Positions 19,904-28,267 of a stretch of 64,000 bases of DNA are shown in pieces; position 1 is the first letter of the stretch, and each line of letters opens with the position of its first letter. The notes beneath the pieces are model-generated. The model was not told the origin of the DNA and searched no databases. It saw nothing but the letters and a program-made list of their open reading frames with translations. The stretch covers positions 62,001-126,000 of the forward strand of contig JAMFSS010000009.1 in the NCBI GenBank assembly GCA_026225415.1, written 5' to 3'. The stretch comes from Alphaproteobacteria bacterium. Its GTDB lineage: Bacteria > Pseudomonadota > Alphaproteobacteria > UBA9219. The position numbers and the translations under genes were made by a program.

Positions 19904-22495
19904 ATGTCCAAAGAAATCCTGCTTGCCGATTACACCGTTCCCGATTTTTTGATTAAAACTGTCGATCTGGATGTTGATATCCGCGACGACCATGCGGTTA
20001 TTTCGTCACGTTTGAAAATCGCGCGTAATGCGAAATCGAAAAAGAAGAACGCGCCCCTCTTCCTCAATGGCGAAGACCAAAAACTGGCCAGCATCACCCT
20101 CAATGGCCGCAAGCTCGGCGCCAAAGAATATAAACTCACCAAGCACGACCTCACCATTCCCAACATGCCGGACAAGGCAACAATTGAGATTGTCAGCACC
20201 CATAATCCGTATAAAAACACGACCCTGTCGGGTTTTTACGCATCCGGCTCGATGCTATCCACGCAATGCGAAGCCGAAGGTTTCCGCCGCATCACCTATT
20301 ACCCCGACCGCCCCGATGTGATGGCGACCTTCAAAGTCACGCTTCATGCCGACAAGAAAAAATATCCGGTGTTATTGGCGAACGGCAATCTGGTTGCCAC
20401 CAGCGACGACGGCACGCGGCATACGGCCATTTGGGAAGACCCATTTCCCAAGCCTTGCTATCTGTTCGCCATGGTTGCGGGCAAATTGGATAAACGCACC
20501 GATCATTTCAAAACCAAATCCGGCCGCGATGTCCTGATCGAAATTTATGTCGAACCCGGCAAAACCAAAGAAACCGATTTCGCGCTGACCGCGCTTAAAA
20601 AATCGATGAAATGGGATGAACAACGTTTCAACCTGGAATATGACCTTGACCGTTTTATGATGGTGGCCACGCCTTTCTTTAATATGGGCGCAATGGAAAA
20701 CAAGGGTCTGAACATTTTCAACGATGCCTGTGTTTTGGGTAGCACCTCAACCGCAACCGACAGCACGATTTCGTTTATCGAACGCGTGGTGGCGCATGAG
20801 TATTTCCACAACTGGACCGGCGACCGCATTACCTGTCGCGACTGGTTTCAATTGAGCCTGAAAGAAGGCCTGACCGTTTTCCGCGAGCAGGAATATATGG
20901 GAAGCGCCAATTCGGTTCCGGTCGAACGGCTGGATGATGTGCGCAGCCTGCGCCGCGCGCAATTTGCCGAAGATGCAGGCGCCATGGCGCACCCTATCCG
21001 CCCCGACCGTTATCAGGCGATTGATAATTTCTACACCTCAACCGTTTACAGCAAGGGCGCCGAAGTCGTGCGCATGATCCAAACCCTTGTCGGGCGCAAA
21101 GGTTTTGATAAAGGCATGGCCCTTTATGTCAAACGCCATGACGGGCAAGCCGTGACATGCGAAGATTTTGTGCGCGCAATGAGCAACGCGAATAAAATCG
21201 ATTTGTCACAATTTCTGGTGTGGTACAAACAGGCGGGCACGCCAATGCTGGATGTCAGCAGCACCTATGACGCCGCGAGCAAAAAATTATCACTGACCAT
21301 CAAGCAATCCTGCAAGCCAACGCCCGGACAGCCGAAAAAACTGCCCCTGCATATTCCGTTTGCGTTCGGGTTATTGGATGCCAAGGGCAAAGACATCTTT
21401 CCCACACGCATCTTGTCACTGAAAAAATCCACCGAGACTTTTGTTTTTGAAAACATCAAAGCCAAACCTGTTTTGTCTTTGCTGCGCGATTTTTCCGCCC
21501 CTGTGCGGTTAACTTACGCTTATCCCGATGCCGAACTTCTGTTCCTTCTGGCGCATGACAGCGACCCGTTCAGCCGTTGGGAAGCCGGCTTCAAACTGGC
21601 CACCAAATATTTGTTAAACCCACCGGATGCGGCCACGGAAACGGCGTTCATTAATGCGTTGGGCAATGTACTGCATGACAAAAAACTGGATGCCGCATTC
21701 AAAGCCAATGTTCTGGCGATGCCATCAGAAAGCGAATTGGGATTGGCATTACAGGCACAGGGTAAATTGATTGATCTGGATGTCTTATACAAAGCGCGCA
21801 AAAATCTGGTGAAGCGCATCGCACAAAAATTATGCGCCGATTTCGCCATTACACATGCGCAACTGGCGAAAACGGTCAAGGACACGGCTGCAGACGGCAC
21901 AAGCATGGGGCAACGTGGTTTAAAAAATCTGTGCCTGTCCTATCTGACGCAAACCGGCGACACGAAAATTATGCAAGCCGTGTTCAAGCAAGCGACCAAG
22001 TCGAAAAACATGACCGACCAGATTGCCGCATTGAACATGTTGGCGGAAACGACTTCACCCCTGCGCGACAAGGCGTTTAAGGCGTTTGAGAAAAAATGGG
22101 GCAAGGTGCCGACCGTTATGGATAAATGGCTGGCGGTGCAGGCGGGCGCGAAACGGACCGATATTCTGAAAACTGTCCAACGTTTGATGAAGCACCCGGC
22201 CTTTACCCTGAAAAACCCCAATCGCGTTTCGGCGTTGATCGGCGTTTTCACCGGAAATATTCTGGGCTTCCACACCAAGGACGGAACCGGATATCGTTTC
22301 ATTGCCGATATGATTATGCAGATCGATCCGATGAACCCGCACAGCGCGGCGGGTCTGACCAAAGCCTTTGCCCGTTGGCGCGATTATGATGCGGGGCGTC
22401 AGGCGAAAATGGTTGCGCAGTTGAAACGGTTGGCGGCGAGCAAAAAACTTTCACCCAATGTGTCAGAAATCGTGGGCAAGAGTTTGAAGAAGTGA
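19904..22495 (+). CDS. pepN: Aminopeptidase N (M1 metallopeptidase)
   Basis: Cytoplasmic zinc aminopeptidase that removes N-terminal residues from peptides. The 863-residue length matches bacterial PepN. Exopeptidase motif GAMENKGLNIFN and zinc-binding HEYFHNWTGDRITCRDW with the third ligand Glu in SLKEGLTVFREQEY are intact. The C-terminal ERAP1-like helical half is present to the end. It lies 37 bp after sufA in the same direction, but it is a separate housekeeping function. Start ATG 19904. Confidence 0.97.
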   Translation: MSKEILLADYTVPDFLIKTVDLDVDIRDDHAVISSRLKIARNAKSKKKNAPLFLNGEDQKLASITLNGRKLGAKEYKLTKHDLTIPNMPDKATIEIVSTHNPYKNTTLSGFYASGSMLSTQCEAEGFRRITYYPDRPDVMATFKVTLHADKKKYPVLLANGNLVATSDDGTRHTAIWEDPFPKPCYLFAMVAGKLDKRTDHFKTKSGRDVLIEIYVEPGKTKETDFALTALKKSMKWDEQRFNLEYDLDRFMMVATPFFNMGAMENKGLNIFNDACVLGSTSTATDSTISFIERVVAHEYFHNWTGDRITCRDWFQLSLKEGLTVFREQEYMGSANSVPVERLDDVRSLRRAQFAEDAGAMAHPIRPDRYQAIDNFYTSTVYSKGAEVVRMIQTLVGRKGFDKGMALYVKRHDGQAVTCEDFVRAMSNANKIDLSQFLVWYKQAGTPMLDVSSTYDAASKKLSLTIKQSCKPTPGQPKKLPLHIPFAFGLLDAKGKDIFPTRILSLKKSTETFVFENIKAKPVLSLLRDFSAPVRLTYAYPDAELLFLLAHDSDPFSRWEAGFKLATKYLLNPPDAATETAFINALGNVLHDKKLDAAFKANVLAMPSESELGLALQAQGKLIDLDVLYKARKNLVKRIAQKLCADFAITHAQLAKTVKDTAADGTSMGQRGLKNLCLSYLTQTGDTKIMQAVFKQATKSKNMTDQIAALNMLAETTSPLRDKAFKAFEKKWGKVPTVMDKWLAVQAGAKRTDILKTVQRLMKHPAFTLKNPNRVSALIGVFTGNILGFHTKDGTGYRFIADMIMQIDPMNPHSAAGLTKAFARWRDYDAGRQAKMVAQLKRLAASKKLSPNVSEIVGKSLKK

Positions 22496-22614
22496 GGCTT
22501 GTGCAAAAGAATCACAGTTTGGCCCGAGATGAAAAATGGGGATTGAATTCATTTCCATCCACGCGAATCGCCTCCTACACTGATTCTCTCGTCAACTGAT
22601 TCGTTCAACTCATC

Positions 22615-23181
22615 ATGGGTGTCCACGTGAAAAAGCTTTCCTCCCTTCTCGCTCTTCTGGTCGGTATTGCCGCCGTTGCTCCGGCGCATGCCGCCGCCTC
22701 CACACCCAACACCATCAACGCCGCCTTTGGCGCCTATGATTTTGATAAAACCGGTGGCCGGCAATCGGTTGATTACCGTTTGGAATATGAATGGGGTCTG
22801 TCTTTGATCCCTTTGATCGACCATGATTGGACGAGCCTTGACCAATGGGTGCAGGTGCATCCCGTTGTTGGCTTTGAAGGAAATGGCGATTTCATGACCT
22901 ATTTCAACGGCGGTTTGGGGGCTGATGTGCCGCTGGGCAGCAAGTTTGTTTTCAGTTGGGATGAAGCGCTCGGCCTCTATGGCCATGGCGACAGCAGGCA
23001 ATCGCTGGGCTCGCCGTTTGAAATGCGCTCGCAGCTTGAGCTGGGCTATAATTTCGACAACAGCATGCGCCTGTCGGCCTATATCAGCCATTTGTCGAAT
23101 GTCGATACCGGCGATAAAAACCCCGGCGCCGAAATTGCCGGCGCTTATCTGCATGTGCCCGTGTCCTGGCTTGCGCACTGA
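22615..23181 (+). CDS. PagL-like lipid A 3-O-deacylase (acyloxyacyl hydrolase)
   Basis: Outer-membrane beta-barrel enzyme predicted to remove the 3-O acyl chain from lipid A. The 188-residue protein begins with a signal peptide (KKLSSLLALLVGIAAVAPAHA). The catalytic signature of the family is present near the C-terminus: YISHLSN with His159 and Ser161, and NPGAE with Glu173. The body is strand-rich with aromatic belts, as expected of an eight-strand barrel. Its stop shares a base with the lpxI start (TGATG), coupling a lipid A modifying gene with a lipid A synthesis gene. The exact start (22615 or a GTG shortly after) is not settled. Confidence 0.82.
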   Translation: MGVHVKKLSSLLALLVGIAAVAPAHAAASTPNTINAAFGAYDFDKTGGRQSVDYRLEYEWGLSLIPLIDHDWTSLDQWVQVHPVVGFEGNGDFMTYFNGGLGADVPLGSKFVFSWDEALGLYGHGDSRQSLGSPFEMRSQLELGYNFDNSMRLSAYISHLSNVDTGDKNPGAEIAGAYLHVPVSWLAH

Positions 23182-24113: not shown

Positions 24114-26546
24114 ATGCCTGTCATTCTCGAGAAAAATCAAGTTGCCCAGCGTACATTGTTCCGCGATGTGCGTCCGATGTCGCAACGGTTTGGCCAATAT
24201 ATTTCCACCGATATTGTCGTCACGACCATAGCCATTGGCACGATCGCGCTTCTGTTCGCGGCGCCGCCACAATTTAGATCCTTTGCCGATCTGGCTGTGC
24301 CGTTGCTGTATTTCTATTTTAAATGGACGCTCAAACGACCCGTCGTGCTGCCTTTTAAAATGCCGCGTTATGCCAATCTGCCTGACCCGCATAATCCCGT
24401 TCCGGGCAAAACGGGGCCGGGGAAATCCGACGGGATTTTGTTTCTGGGCAATGCGTCGGATGATGGCGATGAAGATAATTTCGGCAAAGAAATCTGGTTG
24501 ACCAACAATGACGCCCGTACGCATATTCTGTATCTGGGCACCACCGGCGCCGGTAAAACCGAAGGGTTGAAATCCATGGTCACCAACGCTTTATGTTGGG
24601 GCTCGGGCTTTTGCTATACCGATGGCAAGGCCGATACGGATTTGTGGGCTTCGCTTTATTCGATCACGCGCCGTTTTGGCCGCGATGATGATATTCTTGT
24701 TCTGAACTATATGACCGGCAACTCGGATGATGGATCGACATCCAATTCGATGAATCCGTTTTCTAATGGCTCGGCGTCTTACCTTGCCAATCTTGTCGTC
24801 AATCTGATGCCGGATGCTGGCGGCGATAATGCTATGTGGAAAGAACGTGCCGTTGCGTTGATGTTCGCGCTTATGCCCGCTCTGACCTTCAAGCGCGACA
24901 AGCAAGGCATGTTGCTGGATGTCGGTATCGTGCGCGACCATTTGGAATTGCAGCCCATTATCCGTTTGTCGCGCGACCAAACAATGCCGCAACGCATTCT
25001 GCATGGGCTTGAAGGTTATTTGAACACCTTGCCGGGTTATGTTGGCGCGGCATTCGATGATGACGGCAATGAACGCCCGCCATCGCCCGATCAGCCGATG
25101 TATGACTTACAAGTTGCCCGTCAGCAGCATGGCTATCTGTCGATGCAGTTTACGCGTTCGATGCAATCGCTGGCCGATGAATATGGTTATATTTTCAAGG
25201 CCCAGCTGGCCGATATCGACGTTCTCGATCTGGTGTTGAACCGCCGCGTTTTAGTGGTGTTGATTCCCGCGTTGGAAAAATCGGGCGATGAAGCCGCCAA
25301 TCTGGGTAAAATTGTCGCGTCATGCCTTAAGGGGATGATGGGCGCCACGCTCGGCAACACGGTTGAAGGCGCATGGGAAAGCGCAATCGGCAGCAAGCAA
25401 ACCCATTCCAGCTCGTCCTTCATGACCGTGTTCGACGAAGTCGGTTACTATACCGCCGCCGGTATGGCCGTTATGGCGGCACAGGCGCGGTCATTAGGCT
25501 TTGCGCTTGTGTTCGCGTCGCAGGATTTGCCTTCGATGGAAAAACGTATCAAGCAGGAAGCGAAATCCATCGTCGGCAACTGTAACTTGAAAATTCTGGG
25601 TCGTATTGAAGATCCTACCGACACCAAAGAATTCGTGACCAAACATGGCGGCATGGTGTGGGTCACGGAAACGCGTGGTTTTACCGCACCATCCAATACT
25701 GTGGGCAGTTTGTTTTCGGCCATGCCCTTCCATGATGACCGCGGCGCAAGTTTCCAGGTTCGTCAACGCGTCGATTATGACCATTTGCGCGGCCAGCGCG
25801 AAGGCGAAGCGCATTTGCTGTTCGGTGATTGGGCGCACAAGGTGCAAATGTTTTATGCGGTGCCGGATAAGTCAAAAGCTTTGCGCGTACATCGCTTCCT
25901 GCCGGTTCCGGGTGTCACCAAATCGACCGAAGCGCGTGACCGCGTGATGCTGGAATTGGCGTCGCGCCTGAAAGACCCTTCATGGACGGCGGCGGGCGTG
26001 GCCGATGTGCGCGAAATGCCGGAAATCAATGTTATGGCGGATGCCGTTAAAAAAGCTTCGGCCAACAAAAATTCTGCATTGGAAATGGGCGCGATGAGCG
26101 TTGCCGCCACGGCCAAAATGCCGTCGGTGCCCAAAGTTATGGACGGCGAGCCAGAGCAACCTGCGGCGGCTGCGCCCAAAACCTATGGCGTTTCCGATAA
26201 TTTTGACAGGTTTGACGCGCCGGATGGCCGCCAAAATCCTTATAGCACTGGCGAAATGTATGATCCCGATATCGCAGCGCTGCGCGCCACGTTGCCGCCG
26301 CTTTATGAAGGTGATGAATTCGCGATCGATGAATTGGAACGCGCACCCGGTTATGCGGTCAACAAAGGCGCGCCCGCCTTTGCCGGTACGGATGCCGATC
26401 TGTCCGCCATTTTGCCAAGCTTTGGCGACAGCGAAGACACCGAAGAATTCAGCGCGATCGAATTGCCGGAAGAAATCAAGGCGGCTTTGGCGCAATCTGC
26501 GCAGCAGATGAATGAAGGCTTGCGCGGCAAGACAGACCGCAAGTAA
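24114..26546 (+). CDS. IcmO/DotL-type type IVB coupling ATPase (T4CP)
   Basis: Inner-membrane ATPase of the VirD4/TraD class, closest to DotL (IcmO) of type IVB secretion and to IncI TrbC-like coupling proteins. In these systems it recruits substrates to the secretion channel. The 810-residue product has two membrane segments (about 33-50 and 58-70), Walker A GTTGAGKT (142-149) and Walker B FMTVFDE (Asp441-Glu442) preceded by a Ser-rich stretch. SQDLPSMEKRI, ILGRIEDPTDTKEFV and the FGDWAHKVQMFYAVPDK region follow. The tail after about residue 610 is Ala-rich and then acidic (EFAIDELE, GDSEDTEEFSAIELPEEI), the place where Legionella DotL binds adaptor proteins. No other dot/icm gene is seen nearby. 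Confidence 0.85.
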   Translation: MPVILEKNQVAQRTLFRDVRPMSQRFGQYISTDIVVTTIAIGTIALLFAAPPQFRSFADLAVPLLYFYFKWTLKRPVVLPFKMPRYANLPDPHNPVPGKTGPGKSDGILFLGNASDDGDEDNFGKEIWLTNNDARTHILYLGTTGAGKTEGLKSMVTNALCWGSGFCYTDGKADTDLWASLYSITRRFGRDDDILVLNYMTGNSDDGSTSNSMNPFSNGSASYLANLVVNLMPDAGGDNAMWKERAVALMFALMPALTFKRDKQGMLLDVGIVRDHLELQPIIRLSRDQTMPQRILHGLEGYLNTLPGYVGAAFDDDGNERPPSPDQPMYDLQVARQQHGYLSMQFTRSMQSLADEYGYIFKAQLADIDVLDLVLNRRVLVVLIPALEKSGDEAANLGKIVASCLKGMMGATLGNTVEGAWESAIGSKQTHSSSSFMTVFDEVGYYTAAGMAVMAAQARSLGFALVFASQDLPSMEKRIKQEAKSIVGNCNLKILGRIEDPTDTKEFVTKHGGMVWVTETRGFTAPSNTVGSLFSAMPFHDDRGASFQVRQRVDYDHLRGQREGEAHLLFGDWAHKVQMFYAVPDKSKALRVHRFLPVPGVTKSTEARDRVMLELASRLKDPSWTAAGVADVREMPEINVMADAVKKASANKNSALEMGAMSVAATAKMPSVPKVMDGEPEQPAAAAPKTYGVSDNFDRFDAPDGRQNPYSTGEMYDPDIAALRATLPPLYEGDEFAIDELERAPGYAVNKGAPAFAGTDADLSAILPSFGDSEDTEEFSAIELPEEIKAALAQSAQQMNEGLRGKTDRK

Positions 26547-26577
26547 ACTGATGGCCTGACCTTAAACGGAGGCCGCC

Positions 26578-27288
26578 ATGACTGCTCGCATTCTGTTCGC
26601 CGTTCTTTTTGCCCTGTCTTTTGCCGCACCTGCTTTGGCGGAAGAAACCAAGCCAGACGATATCGTCGCGTTTGATCTTTCTGCCGAAGATTGGGTCACA
26701 ACCAAAACCGCGCATGTCACCGTCAATGTCGAAGCCGCCGTCAGCGCAACCAATGCCGGTTCAATGCGCGAGGATATGGCCAAGGCCGTGGGCGACGCCG
26801 CCAAAGGCGATTGGCGTTTAACCAATTTTACCCGCACGCAGGATTCCACCGGTTTGGAGCATTGGAGTGTTTCCTTTGACTCGCGCTTGCCGGAATCCGC
26901 GCTTAACAGCTTGCCCGATTCTTTGAAGAAGGCCAGCAAGGCGGGCATGCAAATGTCCGTGGGCGATATTGACTTCAGCCCGACTTTGGATGAAACCGAA
27001 GCCACCCGCGCCGGTTTACGCGCCCGTCTGGTGAAAAACGCCGTGGAACAGGTGGCAACCCTTAACACCAGCCTGCCCGGACGCAGTTACCGCATAGCCC
27101 AAATCGCTTTTGATAGCGCCGGCGCCATTGTCGAACCGCGCATCCTTAAACGGCCTATGATGATGTCCGCTATGGCTGTCTCTGCGCCTTCATCTGAAGG
27201 GGCAGGACAGGAACATGCCCAGAAAATGACGATGACCGCGCATGTTGTTTATGCGGCCATCGCCCCTACTGCGGCTCATAATCAATAA
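26578..27288 (+). CDS. Exported protein, possibly SIMPL (DUF541)-like
   Basis: A 236-residue product with a clear signal peptide (ARILFAVLFALSFAAPALA, cut before EETKP). The mature part resembles the SIMPL/DUF541 layout loosely: strand TAHVTVNVEAAV, a helix with an Ala-rich face, then VGDIDFSPTLDETEATRAGLRARLVKNAVEQVATLN and a strand YRIAQIAFD. This assignment is tentative. It lies 31 bp after the IcmO/DotL-like gene with a purine-rich leader (ACGGAGG), so the two may be co-transcribed and this protein may act in the periplasm beside that ATPase. No Cys residues. Confidence 0.55.
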   Translation: MTARILFAVLFALSFAAPALAEETKPDDIVAFDLSAEDWVTTKTAHVTVNVEAAVSATNAGSMREDMAKAVGDAAKGDWRLTNFTRTQDSTGLEHWSVSFDSRLPESALNSLPDSLKKASKAGMQMSVGDIDFSPTLDETEATRAGLRARLVKNAVEQVATLNTSLPGRSYRIAQIAFDSAGAIVEPRILKRPMMMSAMAVSAPSSEGAGQEHAQKMTMTAHVVYAAIAPTAAHNQ

Positions 27289-27349
27289 GGTTGCGACAAT
27301 TACGGGATAAATGCTATGTCGTCTGACCTATTTCATTACGGTTAGCCGC

Positions 27350-28267
27350 ATGTTCCTCAAGCCTATTCATATCATCCCCACCGACACCCATGTCGATTTC
27401 GTTGCCAAGCGCTGGTGGGCATTCAGCGTGACCATTCTTCTGGTCATCATCACGGTTATTTCCTTGTCCGTCCGGGGATTAAATCTGGGCATCGATTTTG
27501 AAGGCGGCATTCTGATCGAAGCCAAAGCCCAGCAGACCGTGGACACCGCCGCGTTGCGTGATGAACTTGCCACGCTTAATCTGGGTGAAGTCACCATACA
27601 GCAATTCGGCGCGCCGACCGATGTATTGATCCGCATCCAACGTCAGGCAGGCGACGAAGCCGCGCAGATGACCGCCATCCAATCGGTGCGCGATAAATTG
27701 GGAACAGATTACGAATATCGCCGCGTGGAAGTCGTGGGGCCGACGGTTGGCAAGGAACTTTTACATGCCGGTATTCTGGCGACGATTCTGGCAATGGTCG
27801 CGATTTCCGTTTATGTCGGAGTGCGTTTTGAATGGCAATTTGGTTTGGCCGCCCTTATCGCGACCTTCCACGATGTGTTGACCACCGTCGGCCTATATTC
27901 CGTTTTGCATCTGGATTTCAATCTGACCGCGGTGGCAGCGTTGCTGACGCTGGCAGGTTATTCGATCAATGACACGGTTGTGGTTTTCGACCGCATCCGC
28001 GAAACCATGCGCCGCCAGAAGGTGAATGATCTGCGCACCATCATCAACGCCTCTGTTAACCAAACCTTGTCGCGCACGACCATGACGGCAGGCGTTACCT
28101 TGCTGGCGTTGCTGCCTTTGGTTTTTATGGGCGGCCCTACTTTGATTAATTTCTCCGCCGCCCTGACATGGGGTATTTTTGTCGGCACTTATTCATCTAT
28201 CTATATGGCATCCGCCCTGCTGCTTTACATGCCATCCTTGCGCCGGATGGAAACACCTTCTAAATAA
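27350..28267 (+). CDS. secF: Protein translocase subunit SecF
   Basis: Proton-driven accessory subunit of the Sec translocon, works with SecD. The 305-residue protein has six predicted membrane segments, the periplasmic D1 signature GLNLGIDFEGGILIEA and the D4-D6 signatures LTLAGYSINDTVVVFDRIRE and NQTLSRTTMTAGVTLLALLPL. The start at ATG 27350 gives the normal N-terminus; an ATG at 27311 would add 13 residues. In most alphaproteobacteria secD precedes secF; here the upstream neighbours are an exported protein and an IcmO/DotL-like ATPase, so secD must be elsewhere. Confidence 0.96.
   Translation: MFLKPIHIIPTDTHVDFVAKRWWAFSVTILLVIITVISLSVRGLNLGIDFEGGILIEAKAQQTVDTAALRDELATLNLGEVTIQQFGAPTDVLIRIQRQAGDEAAQMTAIQSVRDKLGTDYEYRRVEVVGPTVGKELLHAGILATILAMVAISVYVGVRFEWQFGLAALIATFHDVLTTVGLYSVLHLDFNLTAVAALLTLAGYSINDTVVVFDRIRETMRRQKVNDLRTIINASVNQTLSRTTMTAGVTLLALLPLVFMGGPTLINFSAALTWGIFVGTYSSIYMASALLLYMPSLRRMETPSK

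What the first reader, a model, noticed from the sequence alone, without database searches (positions are those of the whole stretch)
24114..27288. Solitary IcmO/DotL-type coupling ATPase in a housekeeping neighbourhood
An 810-residue type IVB coupling protein with both ATPase motifs intact lies between lpxI and secF, with only an exported protein of unknown function next to it. No dot/icm, tra, relaxase or integrase genes are present. It may be the hub of a split chromosomal type IVB system, or an ATPase with an independent role. The acidic 200-residue tail could bind adaptors or substrates.
Basis: partly seen in the sequence, partly recalled or inferred. Interest (0 to 1): 0.7.

Follow-up and report, generated by a model that had tools for sequence, protein, structure and literature searches.

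The report
Coupling ATPase of dispersed secretion machine
The gene looks isolated but is the substrate-loading motor of a near-complete type IVB (Dot/Icm-like) secretion machine whose genes, still clustered in relatives, are scattered over seven places on this bacterium's chromosome; the machine is a known kind, but its dispersal and an extra conserved subunit seem undescribed.

Summary
In detail: window 24114-26546 encodes an intact 810-aa type IVB coupling ATPase, 40% identical to Legionella DotL/IcmO, between lpxI and a SIMPL-domain protein plus secF. "Solitary" is wrong at genome level. The same genome carries single-copy DotM, DotN, DotO, DotI (x2), DotH, DotG, a DotF-like protein, IcmC/TraQ-like, an IcmD-like protein by position, DotD, DotC, DotB and IcmT, plus a type IVb pilus set, in six further chromosomal loci. 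In three relatives these genes form one cluster with IncI-like gene order. In most relatives dotM, then a small membrane protein, directly precede dotL. So dotL left an ancestral cluster in the window's genus, and that arrangement is stable there. No MOBP relaxase was found in this genome. Best reading: the ATPase hub of a dispersed chromosomal T4BSS, probably a protein-delivery machine of Micavibrionales (epibiotic-predator order; assignment inferred). T4BSS presence in Micavibrionales has been reported once. The dispersal, the linked pilus genes and a new candidate coupling-complex subunit (about 160-207 aa, predicted PH-like domain plus TM helix, no family match) were not described in the papers I read. 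DotA/TraY and IcmS/IcmW could not be searched genome-wide.

The parts
24114..26546 (+). dotL/icmO: type IVB coupling ATPase, 810 aa
   Evidence: phmmer to PDB 6sz9 DotL E=4e-131; NCBIfam TrbC 2e-109; single copy in genome, ortholog in 29 of 59 searched genomes, all in the same order
24210..24335 (+). N-terminal membrane region of DotL (residues about 33-74, two predicted helices)
   Evidence: helices in an AlphaFold model that is poor overall but has pLDDT about 80 in this stretch; hydrophobic sequence
24537..24560 (+). Walker A, GTTGAGKT, residues 142-149
   Evidence: aligned to GSTGSGKT of DotL; 7 of these 8 positions invariant in 35 orthologs
25419..25439 (+). Walker B, FMTVFDE, residues 436-442
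   Evidence: aligned to YMCILDE of DotL; D441 and E442 invariant in 35 orthologs
25914..26543 (+). C-terminal tail, residues 601-810, low complexity, mildly acidic, poorly conserved across the order
   Evidence: alignment; charge count
26292..26327 (+). conserved tail motif LPPLYEGDEFAI (residues 727-738), candidate partner-binding motif
   Evidence: recurs in most family-f1 orthologs inside an otherwise variable tail; function inferred
26460..26522 (+). conserved C-terminal helix ELPEEIKAALAQSAQQMNEGL (residues 783-803)
   Evidence: conserved in family f1, helix 786-803 in the model; function inferred
26578..27288 (+). SIMPL (DUF541) exported protein downstream of dotL; genus-level neighbour, not a T4BSS component
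   Evidence: Pfam SIMPL E=4e-6; adjacent to dotL only in the window's genus

Best explanation
The ORF is dotL/icmO, the coupling ATPase of a near-complete chromosomal type IVB secretion system whose genes have been scattered to seven loci. As in Legionella, DotL is expected to form a hexameric inner-membrane ATPase with DotM and DotN. In this order the small membrane protein encoded between dotM and dotL in relatives would join them, and the DotL tail would hold the partners. The complex would load substrates into the DotO/DotB-powered, DotI-DotG-DotH-DotC-DotD envelope channel. Shown: homology of each part, single copies, contiguous cluster in relatives, stable dispersal in the genus. Inferred: assembly, co-expression, and that the substrates are mainly proteins delivered to a neighbouring cell (prey or host), since no MOBP relaxase was found and the lineage appears to be an epibiotic-predator order. 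The pilus genes linked to dotDCB probably serve contact, as the thin pilus does in IncI mating.
For: DotL identity. DotH, DotB, DotO, DotC, two DotI, DotM, DotN, IcmC/TraQ, DotG, DotD and pilus genes, DotF-like and IcmT (63) in the same genome. Contiguous collinear cluster in G014, G024 and G025. dotM upstream of dotL in 62 of 80 loci; lpxI-dotL-SIMPL-secF only in the genus. No PF03432 relaxase in this genome.
Against: DotA/TraY and the IcmS/IcmW chaperones were not seen in the stretches read and could not be searched genome-wide. Other relaxase classes (MOBF, MOBQ, MOBH and so on) were not tested, so a DNA-transfer role is not excluded. No effector was identified. The AlphaFold model of DotL was too poor (pLDDT 55) to add structural support.
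Confidence: 0.85

Rival explanations
1. The dispersed system is still a conjugation (IncI/MPF_I-type) machine that moves DNA, with the relaxase elsewhere or of another class.
For: Gene order in relatives matches the IncI tra order (own knowledge; component equivalences partly in PMC6112013), and IncI-type pilus genes (PilN, PilO, PilQ- and PilR-like, TcpQ) sit next to dotDCB. Small MOBP relaxases occur in 6 of 10 genomes searched.
Against: No MOBP relaxase in this genome or in G013, G024, G025, which keep the T4BSS. The relaxase hits are in short ORFs (243-516 aa, mostly under 320) and in none of the dot cluster stretches I read. In the tree the protein groups with Legionella DotL and away from IncI TrbC. 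The genes are dispersed in the chromosome, not in an element.
Confidence: 0.15
2. DotL works alone in housekeeping (for example with SecF or lipid A functions), independent of a T4BSS.
For: It lies between lpxI and secF, 114 bp after lpxI and 31 bp before the SIMPL gene, on the same strand.
Against: The link to lpxI/secF exists only in one genus. Orthologs elsewhere sit beside dotM and often dotO. The rest of the T4BSS is in the same genome.
Confidence: 0.03
3. The parts are decaying remnants of a former T4BSS and no longer work as one machine.
For: Dispersal can be a step to loss. G028 (100% complete) lacks dotL, and G029 has dotL, M, N, O, H, I but no detected dotC or dotB ortholog.
Against: In this genome the components have open frames without stops, are single copy, and key motifs are invariant across 35 orthologs. 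The same dispersed sites recur in other genus members.
Confidence: 0.08

Closest known systems
Legionella Dot/Icm T4BSS, coupling protein DotL/IcmO and its T4CC (DotL-DotM-DotN-IcmSW-DotY-DotZ; PMC7280309)
   Same: DotL 40% identical over the ATPase core; DotM, DotN, DotO, DotB, DotC, DotD, DotG, DotH, DotI and IcmT homologs present; long DotL C-terminal tail
   Different: Genes scattered over seven loci; IcmS/IcmW and DotA not identified; DotL tail not alignable to Legionella's; a different small membrane protein between dotM and dotL in relatives; linked type IVb pilus genes
IncI/IncM plasmid tra/trb conjugation systems (MPF_I; R64, ColIb-P9, pCTX-M3; PMC6112013)
   Same: Gene complement and, in relatives, gene order; TcpQ/PilN/PilO/PilQ/PilR pilus genes (IncI); thioredoxin-like protein; transglycosylase
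   Different: Chromosomal and dispersed; no MOBP relaxase in this genome; coupling protein about 30-33% identical to TrbC and in a different clade
pT4SSi of Micavibrionales (PMC9418006)
   Same: Very likely the same system: pT4SSi detected in seven marine Micavibrionales by MacSyFinder
   Different: That paper gives detection only; gene dispersal, pilus linkage and the extra coupling-complex gene are not in the passages I read

Membership tests
Type IVB coupling protein (DotL/IcmO/TrbC) | Full-length sequence homology to DotL including N-terminal membrane region and RecA-like ATPase core | tested here: met
   6sz9 E=4e-131, residues 9-600
Type IVB coupling protein (DotL/IcmO/TrbC) | Intact Walker A and B | tested here: met
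Type IVB coupling protein (DotL/IcmO/TrbC) | Groups with DotL in phylogeny | tested here: met
   Monophyletic order clade (97/99) beside Legionella DotL, Bosea and Acinetobacter plasmid proteins (94/99), apart from IncI TrbC (96/96); few outgroups, midpoint root, one long-branch row
Type IVB coupling protein (DotL/IcmO/TrbC) | C-terminal tail binds DotN and IcmSW | not testable with these tools
   tail not alignable to Legionella's; needs biochemistry
Type IVB secretion system | Core channel and ATPases: DotO, DotB, DotG, DotH, DotI, DotC, DotD | tested here: met
Type IVB secretion system | Coupling complex partners DotM and DotN | tested here: met
Type IVB secretion system | DotA/TraY | not tested
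Type IVB secretion system | IcmS/IcmW chaperones (effector systems) | not tested
   no genome-wide search run
MPF_I conjugation system | MOBP relaxase | tested here: not met
   PF03432 absent from G000 at E<=1e-3
FtsK/SpoIIIE or HerA translocase | Best match to FtsK/HerA families | tested here: not met
   FtsK_SpoIIIE only 17.9 bits, below cut-off, against 441.7 bits to DotL

The most novel reading that the evidence does not exclude
An order of epibiotic predatory Alphaproteobacteria uses a chromosomal Dot/Icm-type machine, paired with an IncI-like type IVb pilus and carrying an order-specific coupling-complex subunit (PH-like domain plus TM helix), to inject proteins into bacterial prey.
Probability: 0.3. 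Interest if true: 0.8.

Novelty: new variant of a known kind. Interest (0 to 1): 0.5.

Why it matters
It turns a 'lone' ATPase into the visible end of a near-complete secretion machine that cluster-based annotation is likely to miss: the 2011 genome paper of Micavibrio aeruginosavorus ARL-13 saw no type IV system (PMC3189940), although relatives named Micavibrio carry dotL. If the machine acts on prey, it would be a rare Dot/Icm system aimed at bacteria and a handle on how epibiotic predators feed. It also gives a natural case of a T4BSS kept, and presumably working, without gene clustering, and a coupling complex with a new candidate subunit.

Tried and rejected
An 'empty site' test for dotL's insertion (lpxI directly next to SIMPL-secF without dotL in other genera) gave no such site: secF sits among other genes there, so the ancestral state of the lpxI-SIMPL-secF stretch is unresolved. 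The AlphaFold model of DotL was too poor to use (pLDDT 55). Structure search with the small protein found only weak PH/PTB-like matches (best Foldseek E 0.04; best Z 5.9), which name a shape, not a relative. DotO gave no PDB sequence hit and was identified by homology to the protein at the traU/dotO position of the cluster, its size, and a weak TraC match. Bosea pANAM02, the closest plasmid protein (40%), has no annotated tra genes within 20 kb.

Full report
Observation. Window 24114-26546 (+) is an 810-aa ORF. By sequence it is a type IVB coupling protein: phmmer against PDB gives one hit, Legionella IcmO/DotL 6sz9, E=4e-131 over residues 9-600, with both Walker motifs aligned. NCBIfam gives TrbC (IncI) at E=2e-109 but below that equivalog's cut-off, and Pfam gives two T4CP domains above cut-off. 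FtsK scores 17.9 bits, below cut-off. Neighbours on the same strand are pagL and lpxI upstream and a SIMPL-domain exported protein and secF downstream.

It is not solitary in the genome. The window lies at C1:62001-126000 of a 2.02-Mb, 11-contig genome, G000. Searches of this genome found, each once unless noted: DotH C9:225260-226474 (ORF), followed by DotG (TrbI domain) and a DotF-like protein, directly before secA; DotO/IcmB C1:150542-153535; two DotI C5:102698-104022; DotM C9:141045-142283 with a 160-aa protein beside it, next to parB, parA, rsmG and mnmG; DotN/IcmJ C5:89687-90337 (PDB DotN E=4e-15; NCBIfam E=4e-19), an IcmD-like 130-aa protein by position and an IcmC/TraQ-like 321-aa protein; and C9:about 247.6-264.5 kb with a transglycosylase-like protein, a thioredoxin-like protein, DotD, DotC, DotB, IcmT (86 bits, cut-off 40) and then TcpQ/PilL, secretin PilN, PilO, a PilQ-type ATPase and a PilR-type membrane protein. 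Including dotL this makes seven loci.

The scattered state is derived. In G014, G024 and G025 homologs lie in one cluster: (GcrA-like)-dotI-dotI-dotH-dotG-dotF-like-icmC-icmD-dotN-dotO-dotM-small gene-dotL-(variable genes)-transglycosylase-thioredoxin-like-dotD-dotC-dotB-icmT-pil genes; in G024 the stretch read ends in the first pil gene. Apart from the placing of the blocks, the order follows the traM-N-O-P-Q-R-T-U, trbA-trbC and traH-I-J-K order of IncI plasmids (order from my own knowledge; component equivalences partly in PMC6112013). Among 80 named loci from public genomes, 62 have dotM upstream of dotL; lpxI is the upstream neighbour in five and SIMPL the downstream neighbour in five, mostly the same loci, all close to the window protein. 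In those loci the genes around dotL (suf genes, an aminopeptidase, lpxI, SIMPL, secF) are shared with the window, and the DotM site beside mnmG-rsmG-parA-parB recurs in two other genus members. The dispersal is therefore an old, stable feature of this genus. A member of another family of the order, G029, has dotO-dotM-dotL, dotI and dotH-dotG at three separate places, so splitting appears to have happened more than once.

Distribution. A dotL ortholog was found in 29 of 59 genomes searched, all in the same order; none of the 26 genomes of other orders in the class had one. The named relatives include Micavibrio species and a 'Micavibrionaceae' contig, so I infer the order to be Micavibrionales. 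In a tree of 30 proteins the order's DotL is one clade (97/99), joined with Legionella DotL and with Bosea and Acinetobacter plasmid proteins (94/99), apart from IncI-type TrbC (96/96); only few outgroups were used, one of them on a very long branch, and the root is a midpoint.

How it most likely works. In Legionella, DotL, DotM and DotN with IcmSW, DotY and DotZ make a coupling complex whose parts hang on the DotL tail, modelled as a hexamer (PMC7280309). DotL, DotM and DotN are present here. The window's DotL tail (residues 601-810) is variable but keeps two short conserved elements in its family, LPPLYEGDEFAI (727-738) and a C-terminal helix (783-803), which I read as docking sites; this is inference. 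Between dotM and dotL nearly all relatives encode a protein of about 160-207 aa with a recognisable N-terminal pattern (50 sequences, alignment A2). A confident model of one member (pLDDT 86) shows a six-stranded domain followed by a long helix that should include the membrane segment. It has no consistent Pfam, NCBIfam or PDB sequence match and no plasmid match; structural matches are weak and PH/PTB-like. In this genome it sits beside dotM. It is a candidate order-specific coupling-complex subunit, in the role that DotY and DotZ have in Legionella.

Substrate. No MOBP relaxase was found in this genome, and PMC9418006 describes the pT4SSi class, seen in seven marine Micavibrionales, as lacking a relaxase. 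This favours protein delivery. The recipient (bacterial prey or eukaryote) is not shown. The type IVb pilus genes next to dotDCB suggest a contact function, as with the thin pilus of IncI plasmids (own knowledge).

Limits. DotO was assigned by homology to the protein at the traU/dotO position of the cluster, its size, and a weak TraC match, without a PDB hit.

Novelty. The type of machine is known, and its presence in Micavibrionales was reported once (PMC9418006), though the M. aeruginosavorus ARL-13 genome paper stated there was no evidence of a type IV system (PMC3189940). I found no description of the seven-locus dispersal, the pilus linkage or the small subunit in the literature searched. 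I rate it a new variant of a known kind.

Noticed in passing
G000:C5:84960-89663 (L254:961-5664): A 1567-aa protein with 46 ALTTAQ repeats (PF20080) lies tail-to-tail with dotN; possible surface protein or secreted substrate.
   Followed up: partly
G000:C9:229467-232256 and window 27311-28267: Two of the seven dot loci abut Sec genes: dotH-G-F is followed by secA, and dotL-SIMPL by secF. Chance not tested.
   Followed up: no
G011:C1:16080-18011 and C22:1278-3308: One genome of the family has two dotL copies, each about 64% identical to the window protein; may be two systems or a mixed bin.
   Followed up: no
G029: Has dotL, M, N, O, H, I and icmC but no detected dotC and only distant dotB-like ATPases; loss or missing sequence (95% complete).
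   Followed up: no
G028: A 100% complete genome in the same genus as G024 lacks dotL, so the system can be lost.
   Followed up: no
L207 (Bosea pANAM02) 19974-22676: A DotL-like protein 40% identical to the window's on a plasmid typed non-mobilizable, with no annotated tra genes within 20 kb.
   Followed up: no
window 22615-23181: PagL-like lipid A 3-O-deacylase directly upstream of lpxI; conserved in three of the genus loci.
   Followed up: no
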